Assembly (NCBI RefSeq): GCF_008000755.1
Contig: NZ_CP041690.1
Coordinates: 1,737,260-1,801,259 of the forward strand
Direction of reading: 5' to 3'
DNA: 64,000 bases
Origin: Youhaiella tibetensis
GTDB taxonomy: Bacteria; Pseudomonadota; Alphaproteobacteria; Rhizobiales; Devosiaceae
Within the stretch, counting starts at the first letter, position 1. Every line of letters begins with the position of its first letter. Of the stretch, positions 8,348-63,857 are shown in pieces. Below the pieces are notes generated by a model that had not been told where the DNA came from, did no database searches, and was given only the letters and a program-made list of their open reading frames with translations. Made by a program: the position numbers and the translations under genes.

Positions 8348-9389
8348 TGCGGCGCTCGGTGGCGTCGTAGAGGTGCACGGCCTCCATCGGGGCGCTCAGG
8401 GTGATTTCAGCCAGGGGCGCTCCCGAACGATAGGCGCCGGGAACCCGAGCGATCAGCGTGCCGATCTGCGGACCGCCATTCACATAGAGCAGGCTCTCGG
8501 CGCCAAGCACCTCGACGCCCTCTATCCTGCCGGTCAGCGAGATCGCCGGGTTCTCGATCGGTTGCAGCGAGAGGTCCTCGGGGCGGAATCCGATCATGCC
8601 GCCCCGCACGGGGAGGGCAGGGCTGAGCAATGCCGAAGAGCCACGAAGGTCGTCGGTCGCCACCAGGTTCATCCCGGGCGAGCCTATGAACCGCGCCACG
8701 AAGGTCGTCTGGGGCCTGGCATAAAGCTCGTAGGGTGTTCCCACCTGTTCGATCCGCCCCGCATTCATGACCACCAGGCGATCGGCCAGCGTCATGGCCT
8801 CGAGCTGGTCGTGGGTTACATAGACCGAGGTCGCGCCCAGAGCCTTCTGCAGGCGCCGGATTTCCACGCGCATATGCCCGCGCAGCTTGGCATCGAGATT
8901 GGAAAGCGGCTCGTCGAACAGGAACGCGCGGGGCTTGCGCACGATGGCCCGGCCCATCGCCACACGCTGGCGCTGGCCACCCGAAAGGGCGGCGGGTTTG
9001 CGATGCAGGTATGGCTCGAGCTCCAGGACGCGCGCCGCCTCCGCAATGCGCGTTTCGCGCTCGGCGCGCGGCGTGCCACGGTTCTTCAGGCCATATTCGA
9101 GATTGCCGTAGACGCTCATGTGCGGATAGAGCGCGTAGTTCTGGAACACCATGGCGATGTCCCGGTCCGCCGGCTCCACGTCATTGACGACCTTGCCATC
9201 AAGAGCAATCGTGCCGTCCGAGATCGTCTCCAGCCCCGCGATCATGCGCAACAGCGTGGACTTGCCGCAGCCGGAGGGACCCACAAGCACCAGCAACTCG
9301 CCATCCTGGATGGTCAGGTCAATGCCCTTCAGGGCGAGCACATTGCCCGGATAGCGCTTCTGGGCCGAGTGGATTTCAATGGTGGCCAT
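8340..9389 (-). CDS. ugpC: ABC transporter ATP-binding protein, UgpC/MalK type
   Basis: The start is placed at the ATG giving MATIEIHS. The 349-residue protein has Walker [10 protein letters not shown] (37-45), Q-loop Gln83, signature LSGGQ (135-139), Walker B with Asp159/Glu160 and H-loop His193. The C-terminal third is the regulatory OB-fold (TOBE) typical of sugar and glycerol-3-phosphate importers. It is the last gene of the operon that starts with ugpB at 15602, only 13 bp after the HAD phosphatase gene, so it should energise the UgpA/UgpE channel. Substrate assignment rests on the neighbours. Confidence 0.88.
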
Positions 9390-9402
9390 GCTGTGTCTCC
9401 GC

Positions 9403-10086
9403 TCAGAGTTGTGGCACTGCCATGCGGACATGGCGCGAGAGTTGATCGGCAAGTTCGTCCGCCCCGACCGCGACGCTCAGCGCACCGGCGTCCATGAGCG
9501 CCTCGGGTCTTCCCGATCGGGTTTCATTGGCGGCCACGAACCCGATGGCGCGCACACCTGCCGCCAGCGCCGCGCGGACACCGGCCGGGCTGTCATCGAT
9601 CATGAGCGCGTGGCGGGCCGCGATCCCGGTCTTACCGAGGCAGTGTTCGATGAGATCCGGGGCCGGCTTAGGCGAGGCCACCATTTCGGCGCTATAGACA
9701 TGCGGCGCGAAATCGGCCCAAAGCGGCGTCAGGCCGAGGCTGCTTTCGAGCCGCGTCAGTGTGCTGTTGGAGGCAACGCAGCGCATGACCTCGAACGACC
9801 GGACGAGCCCGAGCATCCCGTCCATGACCGCCAGTTCGCGGCGGAACGTCTCGTAGAGCTCGCCATGCCAGTGGGCGAAAACGCCCTCGGCGTCCGCCAG
9901 TCCGCGGACGGTGAGCATTTGCTTGAGCTCGACCTCGGACTTGCCCGTGAATTGGACGAGCACCTCTTCGGGCGAGATCGGCACGCCGCCCCGGGTCACC
10001 GCTTCTGCCAGCGTCCGGCAGGCAATCGGTTCGCTGTCGATCAGCACGCCGTCGCAGTCGAAGATAATCAGGTCGATGTCGTTCAT
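9403..10086 (-). CDS. HAD-superfamily hydrolase (small phosphatase)
   Basis: A 227-residue protein starting [19 protein letters not shown]. Asp10 and Asp12 are the nucleophile and acid/base of the HAD DxD motif. S-P-K-P-A-P-D supplies the conserved Lys and I-D-D-S the Mg-binding acids. It resembles the phosphoglycolate-phosphatase/beta-phosphoglucomutase group with a helical cap after motif I. Its ATG overlaps the PhoD stop codon (ATGA), so translation is coupled. In this operon it may dephosphorylate an imported or released phosphoester such as glycerol 3-phosphate; that is inference from context. Confidence 0.85.
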
Positions 10087-25360: not shown

Positions 25361-26065
25361 CTAGGCGAGATCGACATAGTCCCGCAATCCCGCTTCATCG
25401 AGGATAACGATGTGGCGATCATCAAGGCGAATAAGCCCATCGTTCTGCCACTGGTTCAACACCTGGTTGACCCGCTGGCGGGTGGTGCCGATGAGCTCGG
25501 CGATCACCTCCTGGGTAAGTTTCAACTCGAGGCGAACTCCGCCTTCCACCCGATGGCCGCGACTCTTGGCGAAAATCAGCAGACGTTCGGCCAGTCGCCC
25601 TTCGGCCCCAAGCTTGGTCAGGGCTTCGATCCAAGCCAGCGCCTCCCGCACGCGCTGCCCCTGGATCAGGATCAGCATCCGGGCAAAGGCAGGGTGCGCA
25701 TCCACCAAGGCAAGAAAATCTCGGGCGGCAAGGTGCATCAGTGTAGCATCCGTCAATGCCCAGCAATCCATCGTTCGTCCGGCACCATCAATGGTCGAGA
25801 TGTCGCCCAACCACTTACCGAGCTCGACGATGTTGACTATTGAATGTCGGCCGGACGGCGACAGCGTGCTGTGTTCGACCTGCCCTGACAGACGGGCATA
25901 GGCGCCGTCGCTCGGATCGCCCTTGCTGAACAGTTGTTCGCTGGCCACCAGATGCCGGACATGCCCGCGTGCCTCGATGGCAGCGCGCGTCTGCGCCGGC
26001 ATCGCCGCGTAAGACGGGTTGATCAGTAGGCCAGAAAAATCAGCAGACCTCTCACCAGTGGGCAT
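25361..26065 (-). CDS. Crp/Fnr-family transcriptional regulator
   Basis: A 234-residue protein from the ATG giving MPTGERSADF; a TTG three codons earlier (26074) is an alternative. A cyclic-nucleotide-binding-like beta roll occupies residues ~20-130 and the Crp-type winged HTH is near the C terminus (L-T-Q-E-V-I-A-E-L-I-G-T-T-R-Q-R-V-N). It lacks the Cys cluster of Fnr, so it is not an iron-sulfur oxygen sensor. The cAMP-site R-S/T signature is not evident, so the ligand is unknown. Confidence 0.88.
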   Translation of the reverse strand: MPTGERSADFSGLLINPSYAAMPAQTRAAIEARGHVRHLVASEQLFSKGDPSDGAYARLSGQVEHSTLSPSGRHSIVNIVELGKWLGDISTIDGAGRTMDCWALTDATLMHLAARDFLALVDAHPAFARMLILIQGQRVREALAWIEALTKLGAEGRLAERLLIFAKSRGHRVEGGVRLELKLTQEVIAELIGTTRQRVNQVLNQWQNDGLIRLDDRHIVILDEAGLRDYVDLA

Positions 26066-26435
26066 CGGGTGCAATTCCGGACAAGAGGGACGCAGGCGAA
26101 ATCATAGTCTTGTTGTGCAGACGTTCAATGACAGATCCATCCGTGGCGAACTGGGCGGCTCGCTCGTCGAAGAGGGCAGGGGGATCACCGTCTCGGCGAC
26201 ACGCCAGCCCATGACACTCGTCACGGGAGACGGTGATCGAGGCCACGGCAATCGAAGATGCCGGAAGAACGTTGTCCCCTGAAAGGCCAAATTCTCATTG
26301 GGCAGTAAAGGGTTGACTCGCCTAAGGCAGACCGGTTTCCTACGTCGAGGGGCGAGTGACAGTGTTCACGTCGCCGCCGAAGGAGGCCATTCCGACTGTT
26401 GTCGACATCGGATCAGACTGCGGAGAGAGAGCGTG
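26066..26435. other. Intergenic region upstream of the autotransporter
   Basis: About 370 bp with no supported gene. Open frames here have no ribosome site or recognisable protein. GGAGAGAG just before 26436 is the ribosome site of the autotransporter gene. Divergent promoters for the Crp/Fnr and autotransporter genes are expected here. Confidence 0.4.
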
Positions 26436-26840
26436 ATGCCAAGCGGCCGGTTTGCTCGTATTGATGGCCTGTGGCCAGCGTACTCGCTCCGTATCGCAGG
26501 AATCCGACGCTTCTTTTTACCTTCTTTGCCATCGGCCAGGGCCATCGCTCTTTGGAATGCGGCCGTCGTGCCTGCGCTATGTGGCCTGATATGGGTGACA
26601 ACGCCACAGGCGGCATTGGCCGCGTGCGGGCTCATAATTAGTTCAACCACTCACGTGACCGGATCGGTCGCCTGCCTTAGCTGGGAAGGCGGCGACCTCG
26701 ACATCGACTGGTATGATACGGGAACGGGCGAGGTCGTGGGGCGGATGAGGCCATCCTTTACACCGGCACAGGTGGCACTTTTCGCAACAACAATCTGGTT
26801 TCAGGAACAGACACTGGCTTCGTCGTCCGCGGCGACCTAA
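26436..26840 (+). pseudogene. N-terminal part of a frameshifted autotransporter (signal peptide)
   Basis: ATG at 26436 follows GGAGAGAG. The predicted start is an extended signal peptide: a long basic N region (R-I-A-G-I-R-R-F-F), then a hydrophobic stretch ending T-T-P-Q-A-A-L-A-A. The mature start A-C-G-L-I-I-S-S-T and V-A-C-L-S-W-E-G-G-D-L-D-I is typical of large autotransporter adhesins. The frame then stops at 26840 without passenger homology, while the passenger continues in the -1 frame, open from 26717. A single-base deletion between about 26710 and 26750 explains both. Confidence 0.7.
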
Positions 26841-26935
26841 GCGATTTCAACAACAACGGCACGACCGAGGGGACCGGCGCCGCCGGCGTCGGCATTCTCA
26901 TCGAATCGACTGGTTCTGTAAGTCGCGTATGGAAC

Positions 26936-28867
26936 ATGGATGATGCCTTCGTGCAGGGGACCGTCGCTGGCATCGACAATGCCGGGCACATTGGCGAGAT
27001 ACTCAATGATCCGGACGGCACGATCCAGGGTGACGATTACGGCATCCGCAATTCCGGCACGCTCGATCTCATCACCAATTCCGGCACCATCCGGAGCGAT
27101 GGCGTAGCGATCCGCAACGAGATTGGTGGTGCGATTACCCAGATCACCAATACCGGTACCATCGCCGGAGACATAACCAACGCCTCGACCGTAAGTCTGA
27201 CGCTGAGCGGTGGTGCGGATGCGGCGCACATGGGCATCTTGACGGGTTCGGACGGCACCACCGGCGCAGCGCACCGGGGTTCAATCACCAGCACCGCGGC
27301 CAACCTCATCTTCAAAGAAGGCTATCTGCTGCTCAACAGCAATATCGACGTCGGCGCCTATGCGGTCACTAATACAGGCGCCGTCCTGCAAGTGGACAAC
27401 GCTATCGCCATTACCGGTGACTATGTCCAAACCGGTGGACGGCTGGTCGCGACCGCGAGTAATGGCACCATCGATTATGGCTATCTTTCGGTGTCCGGCG
27501 ACGCCACCATCTCAAACAGCACCGTTACGGTCTCGGGCCCGAACCTGGCTCTCGACCAGCGCTTTGTGCTTGTCGATGCCGGCGGCACCGGCAGCTACAG
27601 CAACAACACCGCCACTGTGGCGGTCACCAACGGTCTTGCCGCCCGCCTGGAACAGGACGGCGAAGATCTAGTCGTTGTGCTGACGCGAGACGATGCCAAT
27701 ACATATACTGCCAAGGGCCGCGCTGCGGGCGGGAATGGCGAGATCATCGGTGTCGCACTGGACGCCATTTTCGATGGCCCCAGCCGCGCCAGCTTCCAGT
27801 CCGTTTTTAACGCGATCGACACCCAACCGGGCGACGAACAGGGAGACGCTATCAGGCAGTTGGCTCCGAGCAACCTGATCGGCGCCTCTCACCAGGCGGC
27901 CAACGCTCTTGCCGACACTCTTCGCAATCGGCAACTGGCCAGCTTTTCATACTCCGGCAGCGCGCCGGGTGCGCTCGCGCTGCCCTATGCGCCGACCGAC
28001 GTCATCGACGACCCATTCGCCCAGCTGCTCACGCCGCCGCGCGATGCATGGTCACTCTGGGGCCAAGTCCTGGGTGGTGCGTCGCGGCGCAGCGCTGACG
28101 GCGGGGGCGATGAGACGTCAGCCTACAATGTCGGTCTGGTTGCCGGGATCGATCGCCAGTTCTCCGACCGTTTCAGCGGCGGCGCAGCCCTGGGTTGGGT
28201 GCAGACCGGCATGACAGGCAGCGGCAATACGAGCGGATCGACCAGCAATTCCCAGACCTATCAGGGCAGCGTCTACGGCACCTTTCGCCAGAGCGGCTTC
28301 GTCCTCGAAGGCCAGCTGGGCCTGGGCGGGACCCACACCGAGCAGAAGCGCCCCATCCGTTTCCTGGGCGCCACGGCCGAGTCGAGCTTCGTCGGCCAGC
28401 ATTACGCTGCCGATGCCCGGATTGGCTATGACCTCCCCCTGGGCGGAGTGACGCTAACGCCTCGCCTGGGCCTGCGCGTCATCCACGCCCGTAGCAACGG
28501 CTATGAGGAAACCGGCGCAGGCGCGGCGAACCTGACGATTGAGCCAGCCAGTGCCACCAGCATTGCGCAGGATCTGGGCGCCAGCCTCTCGTGGGGCACG
28601 AACACCGCCTTGGGCGACCTAGCCACCGAGATCGGCCTGGCCTGGCTACACGACTATGCCGGCAACAGCGCAACCACTACCGCCACTCTAGGCGGACAGC
28701 GACTGGCCGTCACACATTCGGGCGGTGGTGCGGACGGTATCCAACTGGGTCTCGCCGCCTCCCTCCATTCCGCCAACGGCCTTTCGATGCGCATGGACTA
28801 CACAGGGGAATGGCGCCCCGGCTATCAGGGCCAGAATGGGCAGATCAGGATTTCCAAGGGCTTCTAG
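26936..28867 (+). CDS. Autotransporter passenger and beta-barrel domain (cut from its signal peptide)
   Basis: The first ATG in this frame is at 26936, but autotransporter-like sequence (N-N-N-G-T-T, G-T-G-A-A-G-V-G-I-L) runs back to 26717. Residues 1-250 are Asn/Gly/Thr-rich beta-helix repeats with N-S-G-T and N-T-G-T-I units. Residues about 360-643 are the outer-membrane barrel: W-S-L-W-G-Q-V-L-G-G, repeated amphipathic strands, and a C-terminal Phe preceded by I-R-I-S-K-G. As read, the 643-residue product has no signal peptide and could not be exported. Either the gene is dead, the base is a sequencing error, or frameshifting joins the parts. Confidence 0.8.
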   Translation: MDDAFVQGTVAGIDNAGHIGEILNDPDGTIQGDDYGIRNSGTLDLITNSGTIRSDGVAIRNEIGGAITQITNTGTIAGDITNASTVSLTLSGGADAAHMGILTGSDGTTGAAHRGSITSTAANLIFKEGYLLLNSNIDVGAYAVTNTGAVLQVDNAIAITGDYVQTGGRLVATASNGTIDYGYLSVSGDATISNSTVTVSGPNLALDQRFVLVDAGGTGSYSNNTATVAVTNGLAARLEQDGEDLVVVLTRDDANTYTAKGRAAGGNGEIIGVALDAIFDGPSRASFQSVFNAIDTQPGDEQGDAIRQLAPSNLIGASHQAANALADTLRNRQLASFSYSGSAPGALALPYAPTDVIDDPFAQLLTPPRDAWSLWGQVLGGASRRSADGGGDETSAYNVGLVAGIDRQFSDRFSGGAALGWVQTGMTGSGNTSGSTSNSQTYQGSVYGTFRQSGFVLEGQLGLGGTHTEQKRPIRFLGATAESSFVGQHYAADARIGYDLPLGGVTLTPRLGLRVIHARSNGYEETGAGAANLTIEPASATSIAQDLGASLSWGTNTALGDLATEIGLAWLHDYAGNSATTTATLGGQRLAVTHSGGGADGIQLGLAASLHSANGLSMRMDYTGEWRPGYQGQNGQIRISKGF

Positions 28868-29031: not shown

Positions 29032-29443
29032 ATGGGAAGAGATTCGACCGTCGCTCGGCGGAAGGCCATTCGGAAGGAAGTCGCATCGGATGACGCCGAG
29101 GCGCCAAAACGGCGATCGGAGGCGATGCGGGCGGGGGCGCGCCAGTATCCGGAACCGCCGTTTCCGCCTCAGCATCAGCCCAAACCCGGCAAGGAAGCGC
29201 TGCTGGAACCGGCGCCGATGTATGACGCGCCGTTCTATAAGGGTTCGGGCAAACTCGAGGGCAAGGCGGCCTTGATCACCGGAGGCGATTCCGGGATCGG
29301 ACGGGCCGTTGCGATCCTTTTCGCGCGCGAGGGCGCGGACGTCGCCATCGTGCATCTGGACGAGGAGCAGGATGCCGATACCACGCACAGGGCAATCGAA
29401 GACCGTCAAGACGTTGGGCGCTCTTGACATCCTGGTCAACAAT
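29032..29443 (+). pseudogene. Truncated short-chain dehydrogenase (general-stress-protein type)
   Basis: ATG at 29032 follows AGGAG. The N terminus matches the long-leader SDRs (YghA/GSP39 type): E-P-P-F-P-P-Q-H-Q, K-L-E-G-K-A-A-L-I-T-G-G-D-S-G-I-G-R-A with the NAD motif, then D-V-A-I-V. The frame stops at 29427. The next SDR element, G-A-L-D-I-L-V-N-N, is found in another frame up to 29443, so about 25 residues are missing and a frameshift has occurred. The catalytic Ser-Tyr-Lys part is absent. Confidence 0.75.
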
Positions 29444-29462
29444 TGCCTTTCGCCCTCAGTGG

Positions 29463-29737
29463 ACGGCATTCGACATCTCATCGGTTGGCTGGTCAGCCTG
29501 GCTTGCACTGGCCTGGTACGGGCTGGGCACGCTCGCGCTCGGGAGCTGGCTCTGGTACTCGGGCTGGCACACGCGCAAGGATCAGTGGCCGCGGCCTTCA
29601 TGGGCGCTATGGCGGCGTCGGCCCTTGCCTTGTCCTATCTGCTTCTGGGCGAGCCATTCCGATGGGTTCATTTGCTTGGCTTCGGGATCGTGTTCGCGAG
29701 TGTCCTCCTGATCAGCCAGGAGCATGCGTCGGAGTAA
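29463..29737 (+). pseudogene. C-terminal remnant of an EamA/DMT transporter
   Basis: Directly after the SDR remnant the sequence reads A-W-Y-G-L-G-T-L-A-L-G-S-W-L-W-Y, the start of the last spans of an EamA permease, in one frame. It continues in the -1 frame as A-A-A-F-M-G-A-M-A-A-S, then L-L-L-G-E-P-F-R-W and L-L-G-F-G-I-V-F-A-S-V-L-L-I, the closing EamA helices. The N-terminal three quarters of the transporter are missing. Deletion between two neighbouring genes followed by a frameshift is the simplest history. Confidence 0.65.
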
Positions 29738-35699: not shown

Positions 35700-35759
35700 C
35701 CAACTCGCTGGGAAGCCACGCGATCTGTCCGGCGGAAGTTGGTGCCAACTTGCTGGGAA
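35700..35759. repeat. Imperfect 15-bp direct repeat with a palindrome beside tRNA-Gln
   Basis: CCAACTCGCTGGGAA at 35700-35714 and CCAACTTGCTGGGAA at 35745-35759 differ at one base and are 45 bp apart. The second copy is part of a perfect palindrome AAGTTGG-TG-CCAACTT at 35736-35751. It sits 20 bp from the 3' end of the tRNA, where integrative elements often leave scars. Confidence 0.45.
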
Positions 35760-35779
35760 CATTCAGTTTGCTGAGAGGC

Positions 35780-35853
35780 TGGCTGGGGAACCTGGATTCG
35801 AACCAAGATTAACGGAGTCAGAGTCCGCTGTTCTACCATTGAACTATTCCCCA
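35780..35853 (-). tRNA. tRNA-Gln (anticodon CTG)
   Basis: Read on the minus strand, TGGGGAA pairs with TTCCCCA as acceptor stem. The D-arm has G-T-T-C-A-A-T-G-G-T-A-G. The anticodon loop CTCTGAC sits on the stem GCGGA/TCCGT and carries anticodon CTG. The T-arm has GGTTCGAATCC. The terminal GCCA is encoded. Length is 74 nt including CCA. CTG reads the glutamine codon CAG. Confidence 0.95.
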
Positions 35854-35927
35854 CCGGGTGGAGGCGCGGGGCCTTTCCGGGGGCCGGGCGCGGGGCTCGG
35901 CGGGCTGCCCTCGGGCAGCGCGGGCTC

Positions 35928-35956
35928 TACATAGCGACACGAGTCTGCGATTGCAA
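35928..35956 (-). promoter_or_regulatory. Probable sigma-70 promoter of tRNA-Gln
   Basis: On the minus strand TTGCAA (35956-35951) and TATGTA (35933-35928) are separated by exactly 17 bp, followed by a GC-rich discriminator (GAGCCCGCG). This is typical of stable-RNA promoters under stringent control. It lies about 75 bp upstream of the mature tRNA 5' end. Confidence 0.55.
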
Positions 35957-35969
35957 GCAGCAACAAGAG

Positions 35970-35990
35970 CCTGTGTGAAAAACTCACAGG
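35970..35990. other. Hairpin in the tRNA-Gln / ppx intergenic region
   Basis: CCTGTG-N9-CACAGG with an A-rich loop, just upstream of the tRNA promoter. The surrounding 290 bp (35854-36146) holds further GC-rich inverted repeats, including GCCGGT-TTCG-ACCGGC at 36104-36119, a UUCG-tetraloop hairpin 27 bp before the ppx start. No protein gene is seen there. Confidence 0.4.
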
Positions 35991-36146
35991 AGCCTGCCGG
36001 ACCCGCCCTGGCGGGCAGGCACGATGGCGTGGGCGCCATTGCGCTAACCCCCACCATGCTCTAGGTTCATCGTGACATGTAATTGAACTGCGCCCGGGCG
36101 CGCGCCGGTTTCGACCGGCACGGCGACCGCGCAGACGGAGAAACAA

Positions 36147-37343
36147 GTGACCGATTCCGATCGGTCCGCAGCTGCCGCCGCTCCCGATGGGACGGCGCGG
36201 CGCCGCAACCGGGGCAACTCCCGCCCGGGTCAGATCGCCAAGGGAAGCCCGCCGGCTTCCAAGGGCGAAGCGGATAGGCGGACAGGCAACGCCCCGAATC
36301 CGTCGCCGCGCCGGGCGCGCGGTTCGGTTTATGCAGCCCTCGACCTCGGTACGAACAATTGCCGCCTGCTGATCGCCAGGCCGAACGAACATGGCTTCCG
36401 GGTCCTGGACGGGTTCACCCGCATCGTCAGGCTCGGGGAGGGGGTCTCCTCCACGGGGCGCCTGGGTGACGCGGCCATGGACCGCACTATCGAGGCGCTC
36501 AAGCTCTGCCGCAACAAGCTGCGTGACCACGAGCCGGCCCGCATGCGCCTGGTGGCGACCGAAGCCTGCCGCGCCGCCGAGAACGGCTCGGAATTCCTCA
36601 AGCGCGTCGAGGACGAGGTCGGGCTGGTGCTCGAGATCGTCGACCGCCGCACCGAGGCCGAACTGGCCGTCACCGGTTGCGCGGACCTCATCGAGAAGGA
36701 CGCGCAGGGCGCGCTGATGTTCGACATCGGTGGCGGCTCGTCGGAGCTCGCCTGGCTGGATTTCCGCGGCGGCAGGCCGCGCAGCCAGGGGCGCATGGCC
36801 GCTTCCATCCGGTCCTGGCAATCGCTGCCGGTGGGCGTGGTGTCAATCGCCGAGCGCTTCGGAGGCGTGGACGTGACGCCCGAAACCTTCGAGGCCATGG
36901 TGGCTTACGTCGCCGGACACCTGCGTCAGTTCCGGGGCAGGGAGAAGCTGCGCCAGATGATCGCCGAGCACCCCGTGCACCTGATCGGCACCTCGGGCAC
37001 GGTGACGACCCTGGCGGGCCTGCACCTGGGCCTCGAGCGCTACGAGCGCCAGAAGGTCGATGGGCTGTGGATGACCAACGGACAGGTCATGGAGACCATG
37101 AAGGTGCTGCTCGGCATGCCGTTCGAGCGCCGCACCAACCATCCCTGCATCGGGCGCGACCGCGCCGACCTGGTGCTGCCCGGCTGCGCCATCTTCGAGG
37201 CGATCCGCCGCGAATGGCCGACCGAACGCGTGCGGGTCGCCGACCGTGGCCTGCGCGAGGGCATCCTGATTTCCCTGATGGACGCGGACCGCACGTTCAA
37301 GCGCCCGTCGCGACCGGCCCCGAGGAGCAGCCGTTATGCCTGA
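36147..37343 (+). CDS. ppx: Ppx/GppA exopolyphosphatase-family phosphatase
   Basis: A 398-residue protein starting with GTG; GGAG lies about eight bases upstream. After a ~60-residue basic, disordered N-terminal tail the Ppx/GppA actin-like domain begins with [21 protein letters not shown] and [10 protein letters not shown] are phosphate-binding motifs; [10 protein letters not shown] is the second. It degrades polyphosphate and/or pppGpp. The next gene, rlmE, overlaps it by 8 bp, a common alphaproteobacterial pair. The extended tail is longer than in E. coli. Confidence 0.9.
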
Positions 37344-38049
37344 AATTCCAACCGGGAAAGGCGCAGGACGCCGTTCGGACCGTGACCTCAAGGTGCGCGT
37401 CAAGACCGCGCGCAAGCGCAAGCTCTCCTCCACGCTCTGGCTGGAACGCCAGCTCAACGACCCCTATGTCGCCAAGGCGCGGGCCGAGGGCTACAAGTCG
37501 CGCGCGGCCTTCAAGCTCATCGAGCTCAACGACAAATACAAGCTCCTGCGCAAGGGCATGCGTATCGTCGATCTCGGCGCGGCACCCGGCGGCTGGTCGC
37601 AGGTGGCGGCGGCCGAGATCGGCTCGACCGACGAGCGCCCGCTGATCGTGGGCATCGACTATCTCGACATGGACCCGATTCCCGGCGTGATCCTGCTCAA
37701 GAAGGATTTCACCGAGGACGATGCGCCCGACATGCTGATCGAGGCGCTCGGCGGGCACCGGCCGGACCTGGTGATGTCGGACATGGCAGCGCCCACGACG
37801 GGCCACCGGGCCACCGACCACCTGCGGATCATGCACCTGGTCGAGATCGCGGCGGACTTCGCCATCCAGGTGCTCAACCCCGGCGGCGCCTTCATCGCCA
37901 AGGTTTTCCAGGGCGGTACGGAGCACCAACTGCTCCACGACCTCAAGCGCAACTTCGCTTCGACCTTCCATGCCAAGCCGCCTTCCAGCCGCTCGGATTC
38001 GGCGGAGGCTTACCTCGTCGCCAAGGGCTTCAAGGGGCGCAGCGAGTAG
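37336..38049 (+). CDS. rlmE: 23S rRNA (uridine-2'-O) methyltransferase RlmE/FtsJ
   Basis: A 237-residue SAM-dependent methyltransferase. [19 protein letters not shown] (SAM site), [15 protein letters not shown] and S-A-E-A-Y-L-V-A supply the K-D-K-E catalytic tetrad of the FtsJ family. It modifies U2552 of 23S rRNA in the large subunit. The N-terminal 35 residues are basic, a common alphaproteobacterial extension. It overlaps ppx by 8 bp. Confidence 0.94.
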
Positions 38050-39441
38050 CTACTCGCCGCCTGAGGCTCCCACGCCCTCCTGGGCGAGATGTCGGCCGGC
38101 ATCGCGCGGCAGCCTGAGGAACATGATCACCGACACCGCGCACACCGCCGCCACGATGGCGAAGGCGATGCGGAAATCCGCCACCACCAGTTCGCCGCCG
38201 CGCATCAGATGGCTGGCCTCGAGAATGCCGCCGCCGAGCGCGACGCCGAGGGCGAAAGTCAACTGGCCCCAGACCTGCGCAATGACATTGGCGCCCCCGA
38301 CATCCTTGTCGTCGATATCGGCGAAGGTGAAGGCATTGCTGCCGGTCCAGAAGGTGGACTGGGCGAAGCCCGAGATGATGAGTATGCCGATGATGATCGC
38401 GCCGGGCGTGGTGGCGTCGTAGAAGGCGAAGGCGGCGATGCCGAGCGTGGTGACGAAGGTGGCCAGCGCCAGCGTATTGCGGAAGCCGAACCTTTCGAAG
38501 AGCCAGGTCGCCACGAACTTGGCGGCGAGGGCGCCGATGGCGCTCGAGAAGGTGACCATCCCCGATTCGAACGCCGTCATGCCGAAGACCAGTTGCAGCA
38601 TGAGCGGGAAGAGGAAGGGCGTGGCGCCAAGCCCCAGCCGGAAGAAGGTGCCGGCCACGACGGCGGTGCGGAAGTAGGGGAAGCGCAGGAGGCGCAGGTC
38701 GAGCAGGGGATGCTCGACCCGCAGCGCATGGGCGACATAGAACCCGCCCAGCACGACGCCCAGCACCATGGCGATGAAGCCGTAATAGGTCGGCAGCGCC
38801 GGCAGGCTCACCACCGAGACGCCGAAGACGAAGAAGGCGAAGGCGGAGCCGGCGAGGAAAAAGCCCGGAAAATCGATGGCTCGTGGCGCGTTGCGCTTGG
38901 TGTCGGGCAGGAAGGCGCCGACGAGCCAGATGCCCAGGATCCCGATCGGCACGTTGATGAGGAAGATCCAGTGCCAGGAAAGATAGGTGGTGAGGAACCC
39001 GCCGAACGGCGGGCCGACGATGGGGCCGATGAGCCCCGGAATCGTGAGCCAGGCCATGGCGTTGACCAGTTCGTTGCGCGGGGTGGCCCGCACGAGGACG
39101 AGACGCGCCACCGGCGTCATCATCGCGCCGCCCATGCCTTGCAGGAACCGTGCGGCGACGAAGGCGGTGAGGGAGTTGGAGTGCGCGCAGGCGACCGAGC
39201 CGAGGACGAAGACCGCCATGGCGCCGCGGAAGACGTTACGTGCGCCGAAGCGGTCTGCCATCCAGCTGGAGACGGGGATAAAGATGGCGAGGGCGACGAG
39301 GTAGGAGGTGAGCGCCAGCTTGAGGGCGATGGGTTCGGTCCCGATATCCCTTGCGATATCGGCCAGTGACGTCGCGATCACCGTCGAATCCATGTTCTCC
39401 ATGAACAAGGCGACGGCGAGGATAAGTGGCGTCAGGCGCAT
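38050..39441 (-). CDS. MFS drug-efflux transporter, DHA2-like (copy 1)
   Basis: A 463-residue protein with about 14 membrane spans, starting MRLTPLILAVALFMENMDSTVIATSL. Motif D1/A type elements L-F-M-E-N-M-D-S-T-V-I-A and D-R-F-G-A-R-N-V-F-R and motif C-like G-P-x-x-G-G-F are visible, as in the DHA2 (EmrB/MdtD) drug:H+ antiporters. It lies 43 bp downstream of a close paralog in the same orientation and its stop abuts that of rlmE. Substrate unknown. Confidence 0.9.
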   Translation of the reverse strand: MRLTPLILAVALFMENMDSTVIATSLADIARDIGTEPIALKLALTSYLVALAIFIPVSSWMADRFGARNVFRGAMAVFVLGSVACAHSNSLTAFVAARFLQGMGGAMMTPVARLVLVRATPRNELVNAMAWLTIPGLIGPIVGPPFGGFLTTYLSWHWIFLINVPIGILGIWLVGAFLPDTKRNAPRAIDFPGFFLAGSAFAFFVFGVSVVSLPALPTYYGFIAMVLGVVLGGFYVAHALRVEHPLLDLRLLRFPYFRTAVVAGTFFRLGLGATPFLFPLMLQLVFGMTAFESGMVTFSSAIGALAAKFVATWLFERFGFRNTLALATFVTTLGIAAFAFYDATTPGAIIIGILIISGFAQSTFWTGSNAFTFADIDDKDVGGANVIAQVWGQLTFALGVALGGGILEASHLMRGGELVVADFRIAFAIVAAVCAVSVIMFLRLPRDAGRHLAQEGVGASGGE

Positions 39442-39484
39442 GGCAAATCGGTAAAATTTGAAAACAAAAACGGGTAGTGCGCGA

Positions 39485-40900
39485 TCACTCTTTGCTTTCC
39501 GCGAAGGCGTTTCCGCCCGGTGCGCGGTGTCCCGAAACCTGGTGGCCGGCATCGGGCGCCAGGCGCAGGAACGACAGCGCCGCGCAGGCCGAGAAGATGC
39601 CGACGACCCAGAACGCGACGTGGAAGTCGTTGAGGTTGAGCGGCCCGGCATGGGTGCGCGAGGAGATTTCGAGCAGCGCGCCGGCAAGGGCGACGCCGGT
39701 GGCGATCGAAAGCTGCTGCATGACCGCGTTGATGGCGGTGGCCTGGCTCATGTCGGCTTCATCCACATCGGCAAAGCTGAGGGCGTTGACGCCAGTGAAG
39801 GTGATGGAGCGCAGCAGACCCGTAAGCAGCAGGACGCCCATGATGAGCGCAATCGGCATGCCCGGCGAGAAGAAGCCGTTGACGAAGATGAAGAACCCGC
39901 CCACGCCCGCGCCGAAGCTGAGCACGGTGCGGAACCCGAAACGCGCATAGGTGCGCTCGGCCAGGAACTTGGAGGTGATGGCGCCAATGGCGCTCACGAA
40001 GGTGACAAGGCCGGATTCGGCCGGGTTAAGCCCGAAGGCGAGCTGGAGCATCAGCGGCAGCAGGAAGGGGATGGCGCCCACCCCGACGCGGAAGATGTTG
40101 CCACCGAGCGCGGCGGCACGGAAGAGGGGGTAGCGGAACATCCTGGGATCGAGCAGCGGATACTCGGTGCGCCGGGCATGGAGCAGGTAGAGCAGGCCCG
40201 CCGTGACGCCGACGGCGATGGTGAGATAGCCGTAGACGATGGGCAGGGCCGGCAGGCTGACCACCGAGAGGCCGAAGACCAGGCCCGAGAAGGCGATGCT
40301 GGTGAGGACGAACCCGACGAAATCGATGGGTCGGGGCGTGCGCACGTCGAGCACCGGCAGGTAGCGCGAGGCGAAGACGATGCCGGCCAGCCCGATCGGC
40401 ACGTTGATCCAGAAGATCCAGTGCCAGGAAAGGTAGGTGGTGAGGAAACCGCCGAGCGGCGGGCCGACGAGCGGGCCGATAAGGGCAGGGATGGTGAGCC
40501 AGGCCATTGCCGAAACGAGCTCGTTGCGCGGCGTCGAGCGCACGAGGAGCAGGCGGCCCACCGGGGTCATCATCGAAGCGCCAGCCCCCTGGAAGAAGCG
40601 CGAGATGACGAAGGTCGGCAGCGAATTGGAGAAGGCGCAGGCCACAGAACCCATCACGAAGACCAGGATCGCCAGCCGGAAGATGTTGCGGGCGCCGAAC
40701 CGGTCCGACATCCACCCGCTGATGGGGATGAAGATGGCGAGCGAGACCAGGTACGAGGTCAGCGCCAGCTTCAGCGCCACGGGCTCGGTGCCGATATCGG
40801 CGGCGATGGCGGGCAGGGACGTGGAAATGACCGTGGAATCGAGCTGTTCCATGAACAGCGCGACCGCAAGGATCAGGGGCGTTATCCGCAAGGAAGGCAT
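39485..40900 (-). CDS. MFS drug-efflux transporter, DHA2-like (copy 2)
   Basis: A 471-residue paralog of the downstream gene, alike along its whole length: L-F-M-E-Q-L-D-S-T-V-I-S, T-E-P-V-A-L-K-L-A-L-T-S-Y-L-V and L-S-W-H-W-I-F-W-I-N-V-P-I-G. The start chosen is the ATG giving MPSLRITPL. Together with copy 1 this is a tandem duplication with diverged substrate-facing segments. It probably exports small toxic compounds by proton antiport. Confidence 0.9.
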   Translation of the reverse strand: MPSLRITPLILAVALFMEQLDSTVISTSLPAIAADIGTEPVALKLALTSYLVSLAIFIPISGWMSDRFGARNIFRLAILVFVMGSVACAFSNSLPTFVISRFFQGAGASMMTPVGRLLLVRSTPRNELVSAMAWLTIPALIGPLVGPPLGGFLTTYLSWHWIFWINVPIGLAGIVFASRYLPVLDVRTPRPIDFVGFVLTSIAFSGLVFGLSVVSLPALPIVYGYLTIAVGVTAGLLYLLHARRTEYPLLDPRMFRYPLFRAAALGGNIFRVGVGAIPFLLPLMLQLAFGLNPAESGLVTFVSAIGAITSKFLAERTYARFGFRTVLSFGAGVGGFFIFVNGFFSPGMPIALIMGVLLLTGLLRSITFTGVNALSFADVDEADMSQATAINAVMQQLSIATGVALAGALLEISSRTHAGPLNLNDFHVAFWVVGIFSACAALSFLRLAPDAGHQVSGHRAPGGNAFAESKE

Positions 40901-41110
40901 GGCAAGGACCGGAACTAGCGGCCAGGGGAGCGCGGCCGCGCGGCAGGTATGGTTGTCGATAGTCCTGAGTCCGGCCACTTGGCAACTCAAACCGTCCGCA
41001 CCCCTGCAAAAGTCGGATGGCGCCGGGCGAAGGCGTGGTTAACGAAAGGCAACCCGTGCCGCCTCAGTGCGTTCTCTCTCCCAGGACGAAACCACCCGAG
41101 GAGAGAGCGA

Positions 41111-41488
41111 TTGGCTATCAAGCAACTGGTTCTCGCCACTCTTTTCTGCGTGCCTGCGTTGACGGCCTTCGCGCAGGAGCCGAACCCCGAGGGGACGTGG
41201 CGCGACGAATACGGGACGATCTTCCAGATATCGCTGTGCGGCGACGGCACGGGGCTGTGCGCCAAGCTCATCGACGTGCAGGGCAAGTCGCGGACGGAAG
41301 AGAACCTGGCCTATGTCAACCAGCAGGTGCTGCAGGCAGACCAGACCGCCGAGGCGGAGTGGAAGGGCACGGTGATCTACAACGGCAGCGAAGCGGGAGC
41401 GACCATCAACCAGAACGGTCCCGATACGCTCAGCATCACCGGCTGCCGGATGATCCTTTGCCAGACCCTGGTCTTCAACCGCATGTGA
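41111..41488 (+). CDS. DUF2147-like small exported protein
   Basis: A 125-residue protein beginning at TTG (41111) with GGAGAGAG just upstream; no ATG fits. The signal peptide is I-K-Q-L-V-L-A-T-L-F-C-V-P-A-L-T-A-F-A, cleaved near residue 21. The mature part starts with P-E-G-T-W-R-D-E-Y-G and has G-T-G-L-C-A-K-L-I-D-V and G-C-R-M-I-L-C-Q-T-L, similar to DUF2147 periplasmic proteins. Function unknown. Confidence 0.7.
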   Translation: MAIKQLVLATLFCVPALTAFAQEPNPEGTWRDEYGTIFQISLCGDGTGLCAKLIDVQGKSRTEENLAYVNQQVLQADQTAEAEWKGTVIYNGSEAGATINQNGPDTLSITGCRMILCQTLVFNRM

Positions 41489-41643
41489 CGACCGGGCCGG
41501 ATCGGGTTCCACGGGCTGTCGCAGCCCGCCGGCGCTGCGACAATGCCGCCCCCTTTGCAAACCGTCATGCCGGTGATATTGACCCTCGCCAACCTGAATG
41601 CGGGTGAGTCCCTCGACTCCCCCTTCGATTCCATCATTTCTGA

Positions 41644-43173
<1,530 letters not shown>

Positions 43174-43179
43174 CCGGCG

Positions 43180-43626
43180 ATGAGCGCCAACGCCCTCTGG
43201 CTGCTTGCGGCACTCTGGGTGCAGGGCGCTCTGGCATTGGCGCTGGTCTGGATACTGGGCCGGCGCCGGCTGCCGCTGATCGGGCAGGGGACGATCGCGA
43301 TAGACGAAATCGCGGTCTCCAAGCATCCCTGGCCGCTCAGGGCGCAACTGGCATCGAACGCGCTGGACAACCAGTTCCAGTTGCCCGTGCTGCTCTACGT
43401 GGCCGGCTTTGCCGCGCTCCATCTCGGCCCGACCCTGCTCGAGGTGGCGCTGGCGTGGGTGTTCGTCGCCAGCCGACTGGTGCATGCCGCCATCCACGTG
43501 ACCAGCAACCATGTGGTGCGGCGGTTTTCGGCCTATATGATCGGCTACATCGCCATCATCGCCCTCTGGATCGACCTGGCCGTGCGGCTGGTCGCCCTGG
43601 CCCTTGCGGGCGGGGTTCACTCGTAA
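43180..43626 (+). CDS. MAPEG-family membrane protein
   Basis: A 148-residue protein with four hydrophobic segments, fitting the MAPEG fold (membrane-associated proteins in eicosanoid and glutathione metabolism). N-A-L-D-N-Q-F-Q-L-P-V-L-L-Y and R-L-V-H-A-A-I-H matches the bacterial members. Catalytic activity is not established. It lies between guaB and an RsmB-family gene with very short gaps, so it is co-transcribed with guaB. Confidence 0.85.
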   Translation: MSANALWLLAALWVQGALALALVWILGRRRLPLIGQGTIAIDEIAVSKHPWPLRAQLASNALDNQFQLPVLLYVAGFAALHLGPTLLEVALAWVFVASRLVHAAIHVTSNHVVRRFSAYMIGYIAIIALWIDLAVRLVALALAGGVHS

Positions 43627-43638
43627 GGTTCTCTTTCA

Positions 43639-44922
43639 ATGCGTCTGCCCGGCCGACTGTCCGCCGCCATCGAAGTGCTCGCCGACATGGAGGCGCGCAA
43701 GCGTCCGGTTTCCGAGGCGCTCAAGGCCTGGGGCCTCAACAACCGCTTTGCGGGGTCGGGCGACCGGGCCGGTATCGGCAACATGGTCTATGACGTGCTG
43801 CGCCGCCGTGCGTCCCATGCCTGGGCGATGGGCTCGGACGATCCGCGCGCGCTGGTGCTCAGCGTAGCCGTGCGCGAATGGGGCGAGACGCCCGAAGGGC
43901 TCAACGCAGCCTTTGAGGGCGACAACTTCGCGCCCGCGCCCATCACCGCGGAAGAGGCGACGCGCCTGACCGCGCACGATCCGCTGGCCGGCGCGCCCGA
44001 TGCCGTAAAGGCCGATATTCCCGATTGGGCCGGCCCCTCGCTCGCCTATCTCGGCGACTGGGTGGCCGAGGGCCGCGCCATGACCGAGCGACCGCCGGTG
44101 GACCTGCGGGTCAATACGCTCAAGGCCACTTCCGACAAGGTCCGCAAGGCGCTCTCGCGCTTCACCCCCGCCGATACCTTCGCGGCCAACGGGCTTCGCA
44201 TGTTCGCGGGCGGCAAGGATGCGCGCACGCCAAACGTGCAGTCCGACGAAGGCTACATCAAGGGCTGGTTCGAGGTGCAGGACCTCGGCAGCCAAGCGGT
44301 CGCGACGCTGGCCGGCGCCCGTCCGGGCGAGCAGGTGCTGGACCTCTGCGCCGGCGGTGGCGGCAAGACGCTGGCGATGGCCGCCGACATGGGCAACAAG
44401 GGCCAGATCTTCGCCTATGACAGCGACCGCTCGCGGCTGGCCCCGATCTACGACCGGCTCAAGCGCAACGGCGTGCGCAACGTGCAGGTGCGCGCTCCCG
44501 AGCCGGGAGCGCTCGACGACCTCGCAGGCAAGATCGACCGTGTGCTGATCGACGCGCCGTGCACCGGCACGGGCACGTGGCGGCGGCGGCCGGACACCAA
44601 GTGGAAACTCTCCTCCGAGCAGATCGCGACGCGCCTGGGCGAGCAGGCGGCGCTGCTGGTCGAGGGCGCGACCTATGTGAAGGCAGGCGGGCACCTGGTC
44701 TACGTGACCTGCTCGCTGCTGGCCGACGAGAACCGGAATCAGATTGAGCGGTTTCTCGCAGAACATGCTGATTTCAAAGCGGTTTCCGGCGAAGGGCTTT
44801 GGAACGAAGCCTTTGGCGAGGCGGTTGGGACGCCGTATTTCGGACCCGAAGGCGGCGTGACGCTGACCCCGCACCGGACGGGAACGGATGGGTTTTATGT
44901 CTGCGTGATGCGGCGGGGGTAG
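43639..44922 (+). CDS. RsmB/NOP-family RNA cytosine-C5 methyltransferase
   Basis: A 427-residue protein with an N-terminal RNA-binding region and a C-terminal m5C methyltransferase. SAM motif L-D-L-C-A-G-G-G-G-K-T; motif IV D-A-P-C-T-G-T-G-T-W-R-R; and motif VI V-T-C-S-L-L with the nucleophilic Cys. It lies between guaB and guaA, the common order in Hyphomicrobiales. The RNA target (16S rRNA or tRNA) is not settled by sequence. Confidence 0.92.
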   Translation: MRLPGRLSAAIEVLADMEARKRPVSEALKAWGLNNRFAGSGDRAGIGNMVYDVLRRRASHAWAMGSDDPRALVLSVAVREWGETPEGLNAAFEGDNFAPAPITAEEATRLTAHDPLAGAPDAVKADIPDWAGPSLAYLGDWVAEGRAMTERPPVDLRVNTLKATSDKVRKALSRFTPADTFAANGLRMFAGGKDARTPNVQSDEGYIKGWFEVQDLGSQAVATLAGARPGEQVLDLCAGGGGKTLAMAADMGNKGQIFAYDSDRSRLAPIYDRLKRNGVRNVQVRAPEPGALDDLAGKIDRVLIDAPCTGTGTWRRRPDTKWKLSSEQIATRLGEQAALLVEGATYVKAGGHLVYVTCSLLADENRNQIERFLAEHADFKAVSGEGLWNEAFGEAVGTPYFGPEGGVTLTPHRTGTDGFYVCVMRRG

Positions 44923-44932
44923 GGCCGCGGCT

Positions 44933-45022
44933 CGCGGCCTCGCCTGACCGAAGATCCTGCGCCCCTGGCTCCCCCTCACCCGCCGCTGCGCGGCGACCTC
45001 TCCCCGACGGGGCGAGGTGGCG
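44933..45022. repeat. Palindromic REP-like intergenic element
   Basis: A hairpin GGCCGCG-GCT-CGCGGCC at 44933-44949 is followed by a CCCCCTCACCCGCC...CCTCTCCCC-GAC-GGGGCGAGG unit at about 44970-45018. It contains two further inverted repeats, GCCGC-TGC-GCGGC and CCCC-GAC-GGGG. This style of C-rich palindrome is widespread between genes in Hyphomicrobiales. I saw no second copy in this window. Confidence 0.45.
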
Positions 45023-45085
45023 GAGTTGCCGGCACGATGATGCCACACTAACGTTCTCCAACCACGGAAGCCGCCTCGGGAGCGC

Positions 45086-45526
45086 CTAGCTTTCCGTATC
45101 CAGCCAGATCGTCACCGGCCCATCGTTGGTCAGCGAGACCTTCATGTCCGCGCCGAACACGCCGTTGGCCACTTCCATTCCCTCGGCGCGCAGCGTGGCG
45201 GAGAAGCGCTCATAGAGCCTGCGGCCGTCATCGGGCGCGGCGGCGGTCGAGAAGCCGGGGCGATTGCCCTTGGTGTCGGCCGCCAGCGTGAACTGGCTGA
45301 TGACGAGCGCCGCGCCGCCGATCTCGAGGAGCGAGCGGTTCATGCGGCCGGCGTCATCGGGGAAGATACGCAGCTTGGCGACCTTGCGCGCCAGCCAGTC
45401 CGCCTTCTCGTCGCTATCACCCTGCATGGCGCACACCAGCACCAGCAGACCGCGTGCAATCGCGCCGACTGTCTCGCCGTCGACGGCGACGGCCGCGGAG
45501 GAAACGCGCTGGATGAGGGCTCGCAT
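45086..45526 (-). CDS. dtd: D-aminoacyl-tRNA deacylase
   Basis: A 146-residue enzyme, the usual Dtd length. S-S-A-A-V-A near residue 9 lies in the conserved N terminus; S-Q-F-T-L carries the Ser-Gln-x-x-Thr motif, and N-x-G-P-V-T near the C terminus (N-D-G-P-V-T) is the cis-Gly-Pro chirality filter. It removes D-amino acids from tRNA in the cytoplasm. Convergent with the RsmB gene and divergent from tspO. Confidence 0.95.
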
Positions 45527-45648
45527 GGAGGTCTCCGATTGGTCTGTCGCGGGGATAGCCGCCGCCCGCCGTCGATGCAACCGGGTGAACCGAAACGTTC
45601 CGCGCTTCGTTAGGAGAAGAAGCAATATCCAAACGAAGGCAGCAGACG

Positions 45649-46131
45649 ATGAACAGCCTCGCAATCGACTATCGCAGCCCCAGGTCCCTGGTGATCCTCG
45701 CCATTTTCCTGGTCGTCGTCATCGGCATGGGCGCGCTGATCGGCATCAACACCGCCCCGGGCGAGTGGTACGCCTCGCTCAACAAGCCGCCGTTCAACCC
45801 GCCCAACTGGGTATTCGGCCCGGTATGGTTCACGCTCTACGTGCTCATCGCCATCGCCGGCTGGCGCACCTTCATGCGCGACAGCGGCGGCACCGAGATG
45901 AAGGCGTGGTTTGGCCAGATGCTCCTCAACTGGGCGTGGTCGCCGGTGTGGTTCACGCTGCACCTGCTCTGGCCGGCCTTCGCCGTGATCGTCGTGATGT
46001 GGCTGCTGATCGTGGCGTTCATTGCCGGCTCGTGGCGCAAGGACCGGGTCTCGGCGTGGCTGTTCGTGCCGTACCTCGCCTGGGTCAGCTTCGCGTCCCT
46101 GTTGAATCTATCTGTCGCCATCCTCAACTAA
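45649..46131 (+). CDS. tspO: TspO/MBR-family membrane protein
   Basis: A 160-residue five-span protein. [21 protein letters not shown] is the TspO signature and [10 protein letters not shown] the second conserved block. The family binds tetrapyrroles and is a stress regulator in photosynthetic and other alphaproteobacteria. No tetrapyrrole genes lie nearby. Confidence 0.94.
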
Positions 46132-46139
46132 GTTATTGA

Positions 46140-46769
46140 TCAAGCGTGCAATTCCTTGGCGATGGGCGGGCCGATGACGTAACGGTCGAAGCGCACCTCG
46201 AGCCCTTCGCCGACCGGCGAGCAGCACATGCGTCCGATCTCGACCGATGGGGGCATCGCGAGGTAGGCCAGGCGCACGAGGCGCCACTCGCCGCCAACCA
46301 GCAACTGCACCCGCAACGCTTCGGCGTGGCGGGTGAGACGCAGGGTCACCGGTTGCGAGGAGGCTCCGTCGAGCCGAAGCACCGACCAGTCCGACTGGTC
46401 GTCGCGCGTCACTACCACCGAGAAATGCATGTAGCCGTCGGTGAACTCGACCCCGGCCTTGAGCCAGTTCCGCTCGTCAACGCGCAGCATCAGCCCGGCC
46501 TGGTCGTAGAGTTCGGCATAGTCAGCCGAGACCTGCAGCTCGGCGCTGAAATCGCCCTCGACCGGCTCGGCATAGAAATGGCCGTTGTCGTGGAGGAAGC
46601 CGTAGAAGGTGTTGTTCCAGAAGTCGGTTTCCCGGGCGGTGGTGACAGCGAGCACGCCGCCTTCCTCGCCCCAGATGGGTGGGTCGTTGTGCCAGACTGG
46701 CATGGGCGGCATCTCCACTTGAATCGGATCGGCAGCATCGAGGCGTAACCGGCGGGAACGACTCGTCAT
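46140..46769 (-). CDS. DUF1349 (concanavalin-like fold) protein
   Basis: A 209-residue protein from MTSRSRRLRLD; a shorter start near M-P-P-M-P-V is possible since typical members begin close to the W-x-x-x-P-P block. The core has T-D-F-W-N-N-T-F-Y, D-Q-A-G-L-M-L-R, W-L-K-A-G-V-E-F and S-V-V-V-T, all DUF1349 features of a beta-sandwich. Probably carbohydrate- or ligand-binding; function unknown. Convergent with tspO and divergent from guaA. Confidence 0.8.
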   Translation of the reverse strand: MTSRSRRLRLDAADPIQVEMPPMPVWHNDPPIWGEEGGVLAVTTARETDFWNNTFYGFLHDNGHFYAEPVEGDFSAELQVSADYAELYDQAGLMLRVDERNWLKAGVEFTDGYMHFSVVVTRDDQSDWSVLRLDGASSQPVTLRLTRHAEALRVQLLVGGEWRLVRLAYLAMPPSVEIGRMCCSPVGEGLEVRFDRYVIGPPIAKELHA

Positions 46770-46859
46770 TTCGGCGGCCTGGCCTGTCGCGACGGTGACG
46801 CAGGGCTCCCCTGCGTGCGCCCGCTTGCGTATTTCCCAGACTCCCGCTAATGGCTCGCC

Positions 46860-63642: not shown

Positions 63643-63766
63643 GCCTCATCTAACCAAGGCGATGGAAATCACACAATGAGCCATTTTCAAACTGCTGCAA
63701 TTTGTCCACGCCGCCTAGTCGCCAACCCGGAGCTTCCCCGGGCGGAGAGGCGGGGCCGATTGCACT

Positions 63767-63815
63767 CCTCCACGCGAGTGGAGGCATCCGCGGGGCCCCG
63801 GCTATGCGGCCGGGG
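63767..63815 (-). other. Two hairpins downstream of alr
   Basis: On the minus strand a CCCCGGC/GCCGGGG stem (63796-63815) and a CCTCCAC/GTGGAGG stem (63767-63784; the GNRA loop is GCGA on the plus strand) lie 43-90 bp past the alr stop. The 63643-63857 gap has no supported gene. Likely a Rho-assisted terminator or 3'-end protecting structure. Confidence 0.45.
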
Positions 63816-63857
63816 AAGATCGGGGTGGGTCGAGGAGCGAGGCCCCGTGAGGGGGGC

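What the first reader, a model, noticed from the sequence alone, without database searches (positions are those of the whole stretch)
26436..28867. Autotransporter split by a single frameshift between signal peptide and passenger
The signal peptide ends in frame 0 and the passenger plus barrel continue in the -1 frame with about 120 bp of overlap. Phase variation, decay or an assembly error are all possible.
Basis: seen in the sequence. Interest (0 to 1): 0.5.

Follow-up and report, generated by a model that had tools for sequence, protein, structure and literature searches.

The report
Frameshift-broken autotransporter gene, probably a pseudogene
A bacterial surface-protein gene has lost the link between its export signal and its body through a small reading-frame break; the likeliest reading is ordinary gene decay, although one sequence alone cannot rule out a sequencing error.

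Summary
Frame 0 (ATG 26436, stop 26838-26840) encodes a signal peptide plus a two-cysteine module. The -1 frame, open from 26717 to 28867, encodes a beta-helix passenger and a full PF03797 barrel; overlap 124 bp. A family profile places the break in 26709-26749. In 32 of 33 judgeable relatives signal and passenger share one frame, as in the 7 other near-full-length autotransporters of this genome. The junction has no run over 4 bases, no slippery heptamer and no repeat tract beyond one triplet repeat. The gene lies in a lower-GC stretch beside tRNA-Gln, where DNA similarity to the matching 80 kb of a same-genus genome ends; none of 135 other family genomes searched has a strong match. A truncated SDR gene and an EamA fragment follow within 1 kb, and a ninth autotransporter place in the genome is a remnant, 68% identical to part of a 965-codon frame in the same-genus genome. 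Best reading: decay of an accessory, adhesin-like autotransporter (0.72). Main rival: residual sequencing error (0.19), which only reads or a second isolate can exclude. Low interest; a linked TPR-sulfotransferase seen beside many relatives may deserve its own look.

The parts
26436..26840 (+). 5' piece (frame 0): long signal peptide and two-cysteine, W-x-G-G mature N-terminal module; runs on out of frame to TAA 26838-26840
   Evidence: profile of 12 relatives matches frame 0 at 26559-26708, domain E 1.2e-7
26709..26749 (+). interval that most likely holds the frame break
   Evidence: profile match leaves frame 0 at 26708 and resumes, weakly, in the other frame at 26750; codon-usage score changes frame; no repeat tract or slippery heptamer in 26640-26840 apart from one triplet repeat
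26717..28867 (+). 3' piece (the -1 frame): passenger and barrel, 716 codons without a stop
   Evidence: modelled beta-helix and barrel of 12 long strands, mean pLDDT 79.3, pTM 0.50
26750..28054 (+). passenger (modelled beta-helix, N-x-G-x-I type repeats), then a low-confidence stretch with helices before the barrel
   Evidence: (conserved columns)
28055..28864 (+). autotransporter beta-barrel (PF03797 match 28055-28804, profile 1-255 of 255) and last strand with C-terminal Phe
   Evidence: (E 1.5e-39)
29032..29427 (+). neighbour: truncated short-chain dehydrogenase, about the first third left
   Evidence: query 43-124 matches 12-94 of a 291-aa chain; profile 2-95 of 293
29546..29737 (+). neighbour: C-terminal fragment of an EamA-type transporter (profile 80-134 of 135)
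35780..35853 (-). tRNA-Gln at which DNA similarity to the compared 80 kb of the same-genus genome begins; the autotransporter lies on the other, lower-GC side

Best explanation
This is a recently inactivated, probably horizontally acquired autotransporter (type Va secretion) gene. Its relatives encode an exported protein: signal peptide, N-terminal module, a beta-helix passenger of short repeats presumed to act as an adhesin, and a barrel that would put the passenger on the cell surface. A small indel just after the N-terminal module moved passenger and barrel out of the frame of the signal peptide. Translation from the frame-0 start should give only a 134-residue product, and the passenger and barrel would have no export signal. 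The gene sits in a lower-GC accessory stretch next to tRNA-Gln where two neighbouring genes are also truncated, so ordinary decay of unneeded accessory DNA is the likeliest cause. Shown: the frames, the homology of both halves, in-frame relatives, truncated neighbours, no known type of switch sequence found. Inferred: that the lesion is real and fixed, loss of function, recency, adhesin role, horizontal origin.
For: Both frames match the same family on either side of 26709-26749. Of 41 loci with a relative, 8 are cut at the 5' side and were not judged; 32 of the other 33 have the passenger in one open frame with a signal-like segment. The 7 other near-full-length autotransporters of this genome have a signal-like N-terminus in frame, read by eye. 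The ninth PF03797 place is a remnant with 150 of 255 profile positions and an internal TAG; its 157-aa open piece is 68% identical to part of a 965-codon open frame of the same-genus genome. Truncated SDR and EamA pieces lie within 1 kb downstream. This genome alone of 136 searched in its family, and 4 of 397 in its order (this one included), have a match at E <= 1e-20. DNA similarity to the compared 80 kb of the same-genus genome begins at tRNA-Gln; GC is about 0.60-0.64 over 12-35 kb against 0.64-0.68 over 36-62 kb. No run above 4 bases and no slippery heptamer in 26640-26840; no tandem tract. Codon usage of the 3' piece is normal for the genome (32nd percentile of 168 genes).
Against: The 3' piece has no stop in 716 codons and keeps conserved residues, so decay must be recent (stop-free survival allows roughly up to 0.06 neutral substitutions per site) or the break is an error. 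Only one genome of the species was at hand, so no sister copy could be compared. The truncated SDR and EamA show that the neighbourhood decays, not that this break is real. 7 of 9 autotransporter places in this genome look whole, so there is no general loss of such genes. The profile match just after the break is weak.
Confidence: 0.72

Rival explanations
1. The frame break is a residual sequencing or assembly error in an intact, working autotransporter gene.
For: A single small break in an otherwise clean 716-codon frame with conserved residues kept and normal codon usage; relatives in one frame; no reads available to check.
Against: Genome is one contig, 99.99% complete, 0.27% contamination. 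In a 400 kb sample 102 of 106 direct same-strand frame switches have the upstream stop within 30 nt; 3 of the other 4 pass the strict rule, with that stop only 32-41 nt past the switch. The scan flags 78 of 80 simulated mid-gene shifts, 57 of 80 by the upstream-stop rule alone, but only 16 of 80 (13 by that rule) about 100 nt from a 5' end, so it says little about breaks like this one. Longest run near the break is 4 bases. The truncations next door are not single-base errors.
Confidence: 0.19
2. Reversible phase variation by slipped-strand mispairing, as in meningococcal autA and autB, with this genome caught in the off state.
For: Autotransporters are known phase-variable genes, and in autB the repeats lie in the signal-sequence DNA (PMC5118866, passages); the 3' piece is whole, as expected of an off-phase gene.
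Against: No run above 4 and no di- or trinucleotide repeat of 3 or more copies in 26640-26840 except a CAA triplet repeat at 26785, whose gain or loss would not change the frame; no tandem array near the junction. The junctions of relatives were not tested for repeat tracts.
Confidence: 0.06
3. Programmed -1 ribosomal frameshifting joins the two frames during translation.
For: The shift direction is -1 and the 124 bp overlap would allow it.
Against: No XXXYYYZ heptamer in any frame of 26640-26834; 32 of 33 judgeable relatives need no shift.
Confidence: 0.03

Closest known systems
capC/capD autotransporters of Campylobacter (PMC7168839; abstract and the section 'Lineage-specific associations' read)
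   Same: Autotransporter genes with patchy, lineage-linked distribution, found intact and inactivated by frameshifts or premature stops; for capC, inactivation independent of homopolymer length upstream.
   Different: Shown there in 7176 genomes; here a single genome, another family and organism.
autB of Neisseria meningitidis (PMC5118866; passages read)
   Same: Autotransporter silenced by a frame break at the 5' end; further disruptions in some strains.
   Different: autB has AAGC repeats that switch the frame; no such tract was found here.
Plasmid autotransporter of Enterobacter sp. 638 (Ent638_4267 in PMC2869309, passages read; I equate it with L020 by its neighbours) and relatives in Lelliottia and Kluyvera
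   Same: Same passenger repeat type, two-cysteine N-terminal module and barrel, 31% identity to the window protein in the alignment.
   Different: One open frame, and beside TPR-sulfotransferase and TPR ('glycosyl transferase family 8') genes, which the window lacks.
Thalassospira autotransporters (L016, L017, L029)
   Same: Among the closest named relatives found, about 36-39% identity; same order of parts.
   Different: One continuous frame each; the deposited gene starts of L016 and L017 lie inside the passenger.

Membership tests
Classical autotransporter (type Va) | C-terminal 12-strand barrel (PF03797) | tested here: met
   E 1.5e-39, profile 1-255 of 255; 12 long strands in the model; NalP, EspP, AIDA-I barrels among the Foldseek matches
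Classical autotransporter (type Va) | beta-helical passenger N-terminal to the barrel | tested here: met
   modelled strands, block pLDDT 89-98 over residues 11-240; beta-helix is my reading of the strand pattern; no Pfam passenger family matched
Classical autotransporter (type Va) | signal peptide in the same reading frame | tested here: not met
   signal peptide in frame 0, passenger in the -1 frame
Autotransporter pseudogene | frame-breaking lesion compared with relatives in one frame | tested here: met
Autotransporter pseudogene | lesion real and fixed in the population | not testable with these tools
   no reads and no second isolate at hand
Phase-variable autotransporter | frame-changing simple-sequence repeat at the break | tested here: not met
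Programmed -1 frameshift gene | slippery heptamer in the overlap | tested here: not met
Programmed -1 frameshift gene | shift kept in relatives | tested here: not met

The most novel reading that the evidence does not exclude
The split is a functional, reversible or recoded off state of a surface adhesin that uses no repeat tract or known slippery sequence.
Probability: 0.03. Interest if true: 0.5.

Novelty: new member of a known kind. Interest (0 to 1): 0.12.

Why it matters
It is one more likely instance of an accessory autotransporter being lost by a small frame break, and a caution that a full-looking barrel frame need not mean a working surface protein. It would matter more only if the break proved reversible or recoded. 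The linkage seen in relatives (autotransporter beside a TPR-sulfotransferase and a TPR protein) is the more fertile lead.

Tried and rejected
Chance overlap of unrelated ORFs: rejected, both halves match one family. A signal peptide in the passenger frame just upstream: rejected, that frame is closed at 26714-26716. Frame switch at a tandem repeat: none found. Integrated element with att site: no second exact copy of 12 nt or more of the tRNA-Gln outside 35700-35900 in the window and no integrase among the 27 window ORFs sent to Pfam (not every ORF of the window), so 'accessory stretch' rests on GC, synteny and distribution only. A frame change inside the EamA fragment: hinted by codon usage, but the other-frame piece had no Pfam match, so not claimed. 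The frame scan does not call the autotransporter break, because the signal-peptide stretch scores as non-coding. Naming the organism: a 16S family search of the genome found nothing (the same search rang in 9 of 14 control genomes) and was not pursued. First genome-contig scan with the single protein found no relative; the alignment scan gave 33 loci. Promoter and terminator scan near the shuffled level. Relatives left out of the count of 41: the 12 distant matches (L003-L014) and 19 of the 24 plasmid records.

Full report
What is there. Frame 0 runs through an ATG at 26436 and stops at 26838-26840; its product has a basic start, a hydrophobic stretch, an A-x-A type end and then a short module with two cysteines and W-x-G-G (signal peptide judged by eye, no predictor was run). 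The -1 frame is closed by a TGA at 26714-26716 and then open for 716 codons to 28867. It carries a full autotransporter barrel (PF03797, E 1.5e-39) and a repeat passenger; the model shows a long run of short strands, read as a beta-helix, and a barrel of 12 long strands (mean pLDDT 79.3, pTM 0.50; best Foldseek matches are autotransporters such as EstA, NalP, EspP and AIDA-I). The overlap is 124 bp.

Where the break is. A profile of the N-terminal region of 12 relatives, which I chose from the loci, was run against 46 six-frame segments of 26000-27600. It matches frame 0 over 26559-26708 (domain E 1.2e-7) and the other frame from 26750 (domain E 0.006); that other frame as a whole stays at E 0.2, and the profile matches a later passenger repeat better (1.4e-4). 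A codon-usage score trained on 84,390 codons of 20 stretches of this genome favours frame 0 at about 26640-26745 and the other frame afterwards; over the signal peptide frame 0 scores poorly and over about 26475-26580 the other frame is slightly ahead. The model is confident from about the eleventh codon of the open frame. The break is therefore most likely within 26709-26749.

Relatives. I examined 41 loci: 5 of the 24 plasmid records, the 33 loci and 3 from the order search. 8 are cut at the 5' side and were not judged (L030, L031, L038, L051, L059, L061, L062, L064). Of the other 33, 32 have the passenger in the same open frame as a hydrophobic segment after a start codon (crude criterion of mean hydropathy 1.6 over 12 residues; in L045 and L049 the segment it picked is internal, and I rely on the N-terminus printed). 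L042, a contig of 4,105 bases of a metagenome-assembled genome, I count as the exception, because its frame opens only 20 codons before a match that starts at residue 197. Identities over long stretches are about 29-40%. In the window genome PF03797 hits 9 places: this one, seven others with open frames of 810-1187 codons whose N-termini, read by eye, hold a signal-like segment in frame, and a remnant with 150 of 255 profile positions and an internal TAG, whose 157-aa open piece is 68% identical to part of a 965-codon open frame in the same-genus genome.

Surroundings. Upstream are a Crp-type regulator and a carboxylesterase on the other strand. Downstream are an SDR gene that stops after about a third of its length, a piece with only the C-terminal part of an EamA transporter, a DUF305 protein and a Na/H antiporter. 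DNA similarity to the 80 kb of the same-genus genome around its matching place covers 35777-48430 in pieces and begins at tRNA-Gln; left of it there is one 71% piece at 8782-9337. The rest of that genome was not compared as DNA, but the antiporter and the esterase have only distant matches in it. GC is about 0.60-0.64 from 12 to 35 kb and 0.64-0.68 from 36 to 62 kb. No other genome of the 136 searched in the family and 3 others of the 397 in the order sample have a match at E <= 1e-20. This fits an accessory stretch; no integrase or att copy was found in what I searched.

Why decay. Nothing at the junction is of a kind known to drive switching or recoding: in 26640-26840 runs are at most 4 bases, there is no XXXYYYZ heptamer in any frame, and the only repeat is a CAA triplet (tandem scan). 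Two neighbouring genes are truncated and another autotransporter of the genome is a remnant. Precedent: frameshifted, lineage-linked autotransporter genes in Campylobacter (PMC7168839, abstract and one section read). The contrast is autB of meningococci, where AAGC repeats switch the frame (PMC5118866, passages).

Why not certain. The 3' piece is clean: normal codon usage (32nd percentile of 168 genes), conserved residues kept, no stop, which limits neutral drift since the break to roughly 0.06 substitutions per site. A recent lesion and a single consensus error would both look like that. In 400 kb of this genome a frame scan found 106 direct same-strand frame switches; in 102 the upstream stop lies within 30 nt, and 3 of the other 4 pass the strict rule, with the upstream stop 32-41 nt past the switch. 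In the window it found 12, none passing; one, at 62591, has the upstream stop 227 nt on but the downstream frame open only 12 nt before. The control flags 78 of 80 simulated mid-gene shifts (57 by the upstream-stop rule) and 16 of 80 (13) near a 5' end. So the assembly is not riddled with breaks, but the scan says little about this one site.

Side observation. 20 of the 41 loci carry, within the DNA fetched, a gene like the TPR-sulfotransferase of L017 (18 loci) or the TPR gene annotated 'glycosyl transferase family 8' of L018; the loci are not all independent (several Herbaspirillum; L018 and L020 nearly alike). In Pfam the first has Sulfotransfer_3 and TPR, the second only TPR. The window and 400 kb of its genome have neither, and a search of the whole genome with the first found only weak matches in the query's TPR part; the second was not sought genome-wide. 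The Enterobacter sp. 638 paper mentions two TPR genes next to its plasmid hemagglutinin-related autotransporter (PMC2869309, passages). One search for papers that hold sulfotransferase, autotransporter, tetratricopeptide and adhesin together returned none in that library.

Noticed in passing
L017-L020, L032-L037, L040, L043-L048, L050, L053, L061: Relatives of this autotransporter are often next to a TPR-sulfotransferase (18 of 41 loci) and/or a TPR gene annotated as glycosyl transferase family 8 (either one in 20 of 41; domains). Possibly a conserved cassette for modifying a surface adhesin; absent from the window.
   Followed up: partly
L016 4217 and L017 4244 (deposited gene starts): The deposited starts of the two Thalassospira autotransporters lie inside the passenger; the open frame with a signal-like N-terminus begins hundreds of bases upstream.
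   Followed up: yes
window genome 709100-709603 (L068 about 9100-9603): C-terminal barrel remnant of another autotransporter with an internal TAG; open piece 68% identical to part of a 965-codon frame in the same-genus genome.
   Followed up: yes
window 29032-29737: Truncated SDR followed directly by an EamA fragment; codon usage hints at a further frame change inside the EamA piece.
   Followed up: partly
window 63722-63835: Repeat of about 100 bp with four similar places in 80 kb of the same-genus genome.
   Followed up: no
window 12000-35780: Lower-GC stretch ending at tRNA-Gln with genes of stress-response type: ferritin-like, cupin, MsrA and SelR domains, antiporter, sensor kinases.
   Followed up: partly
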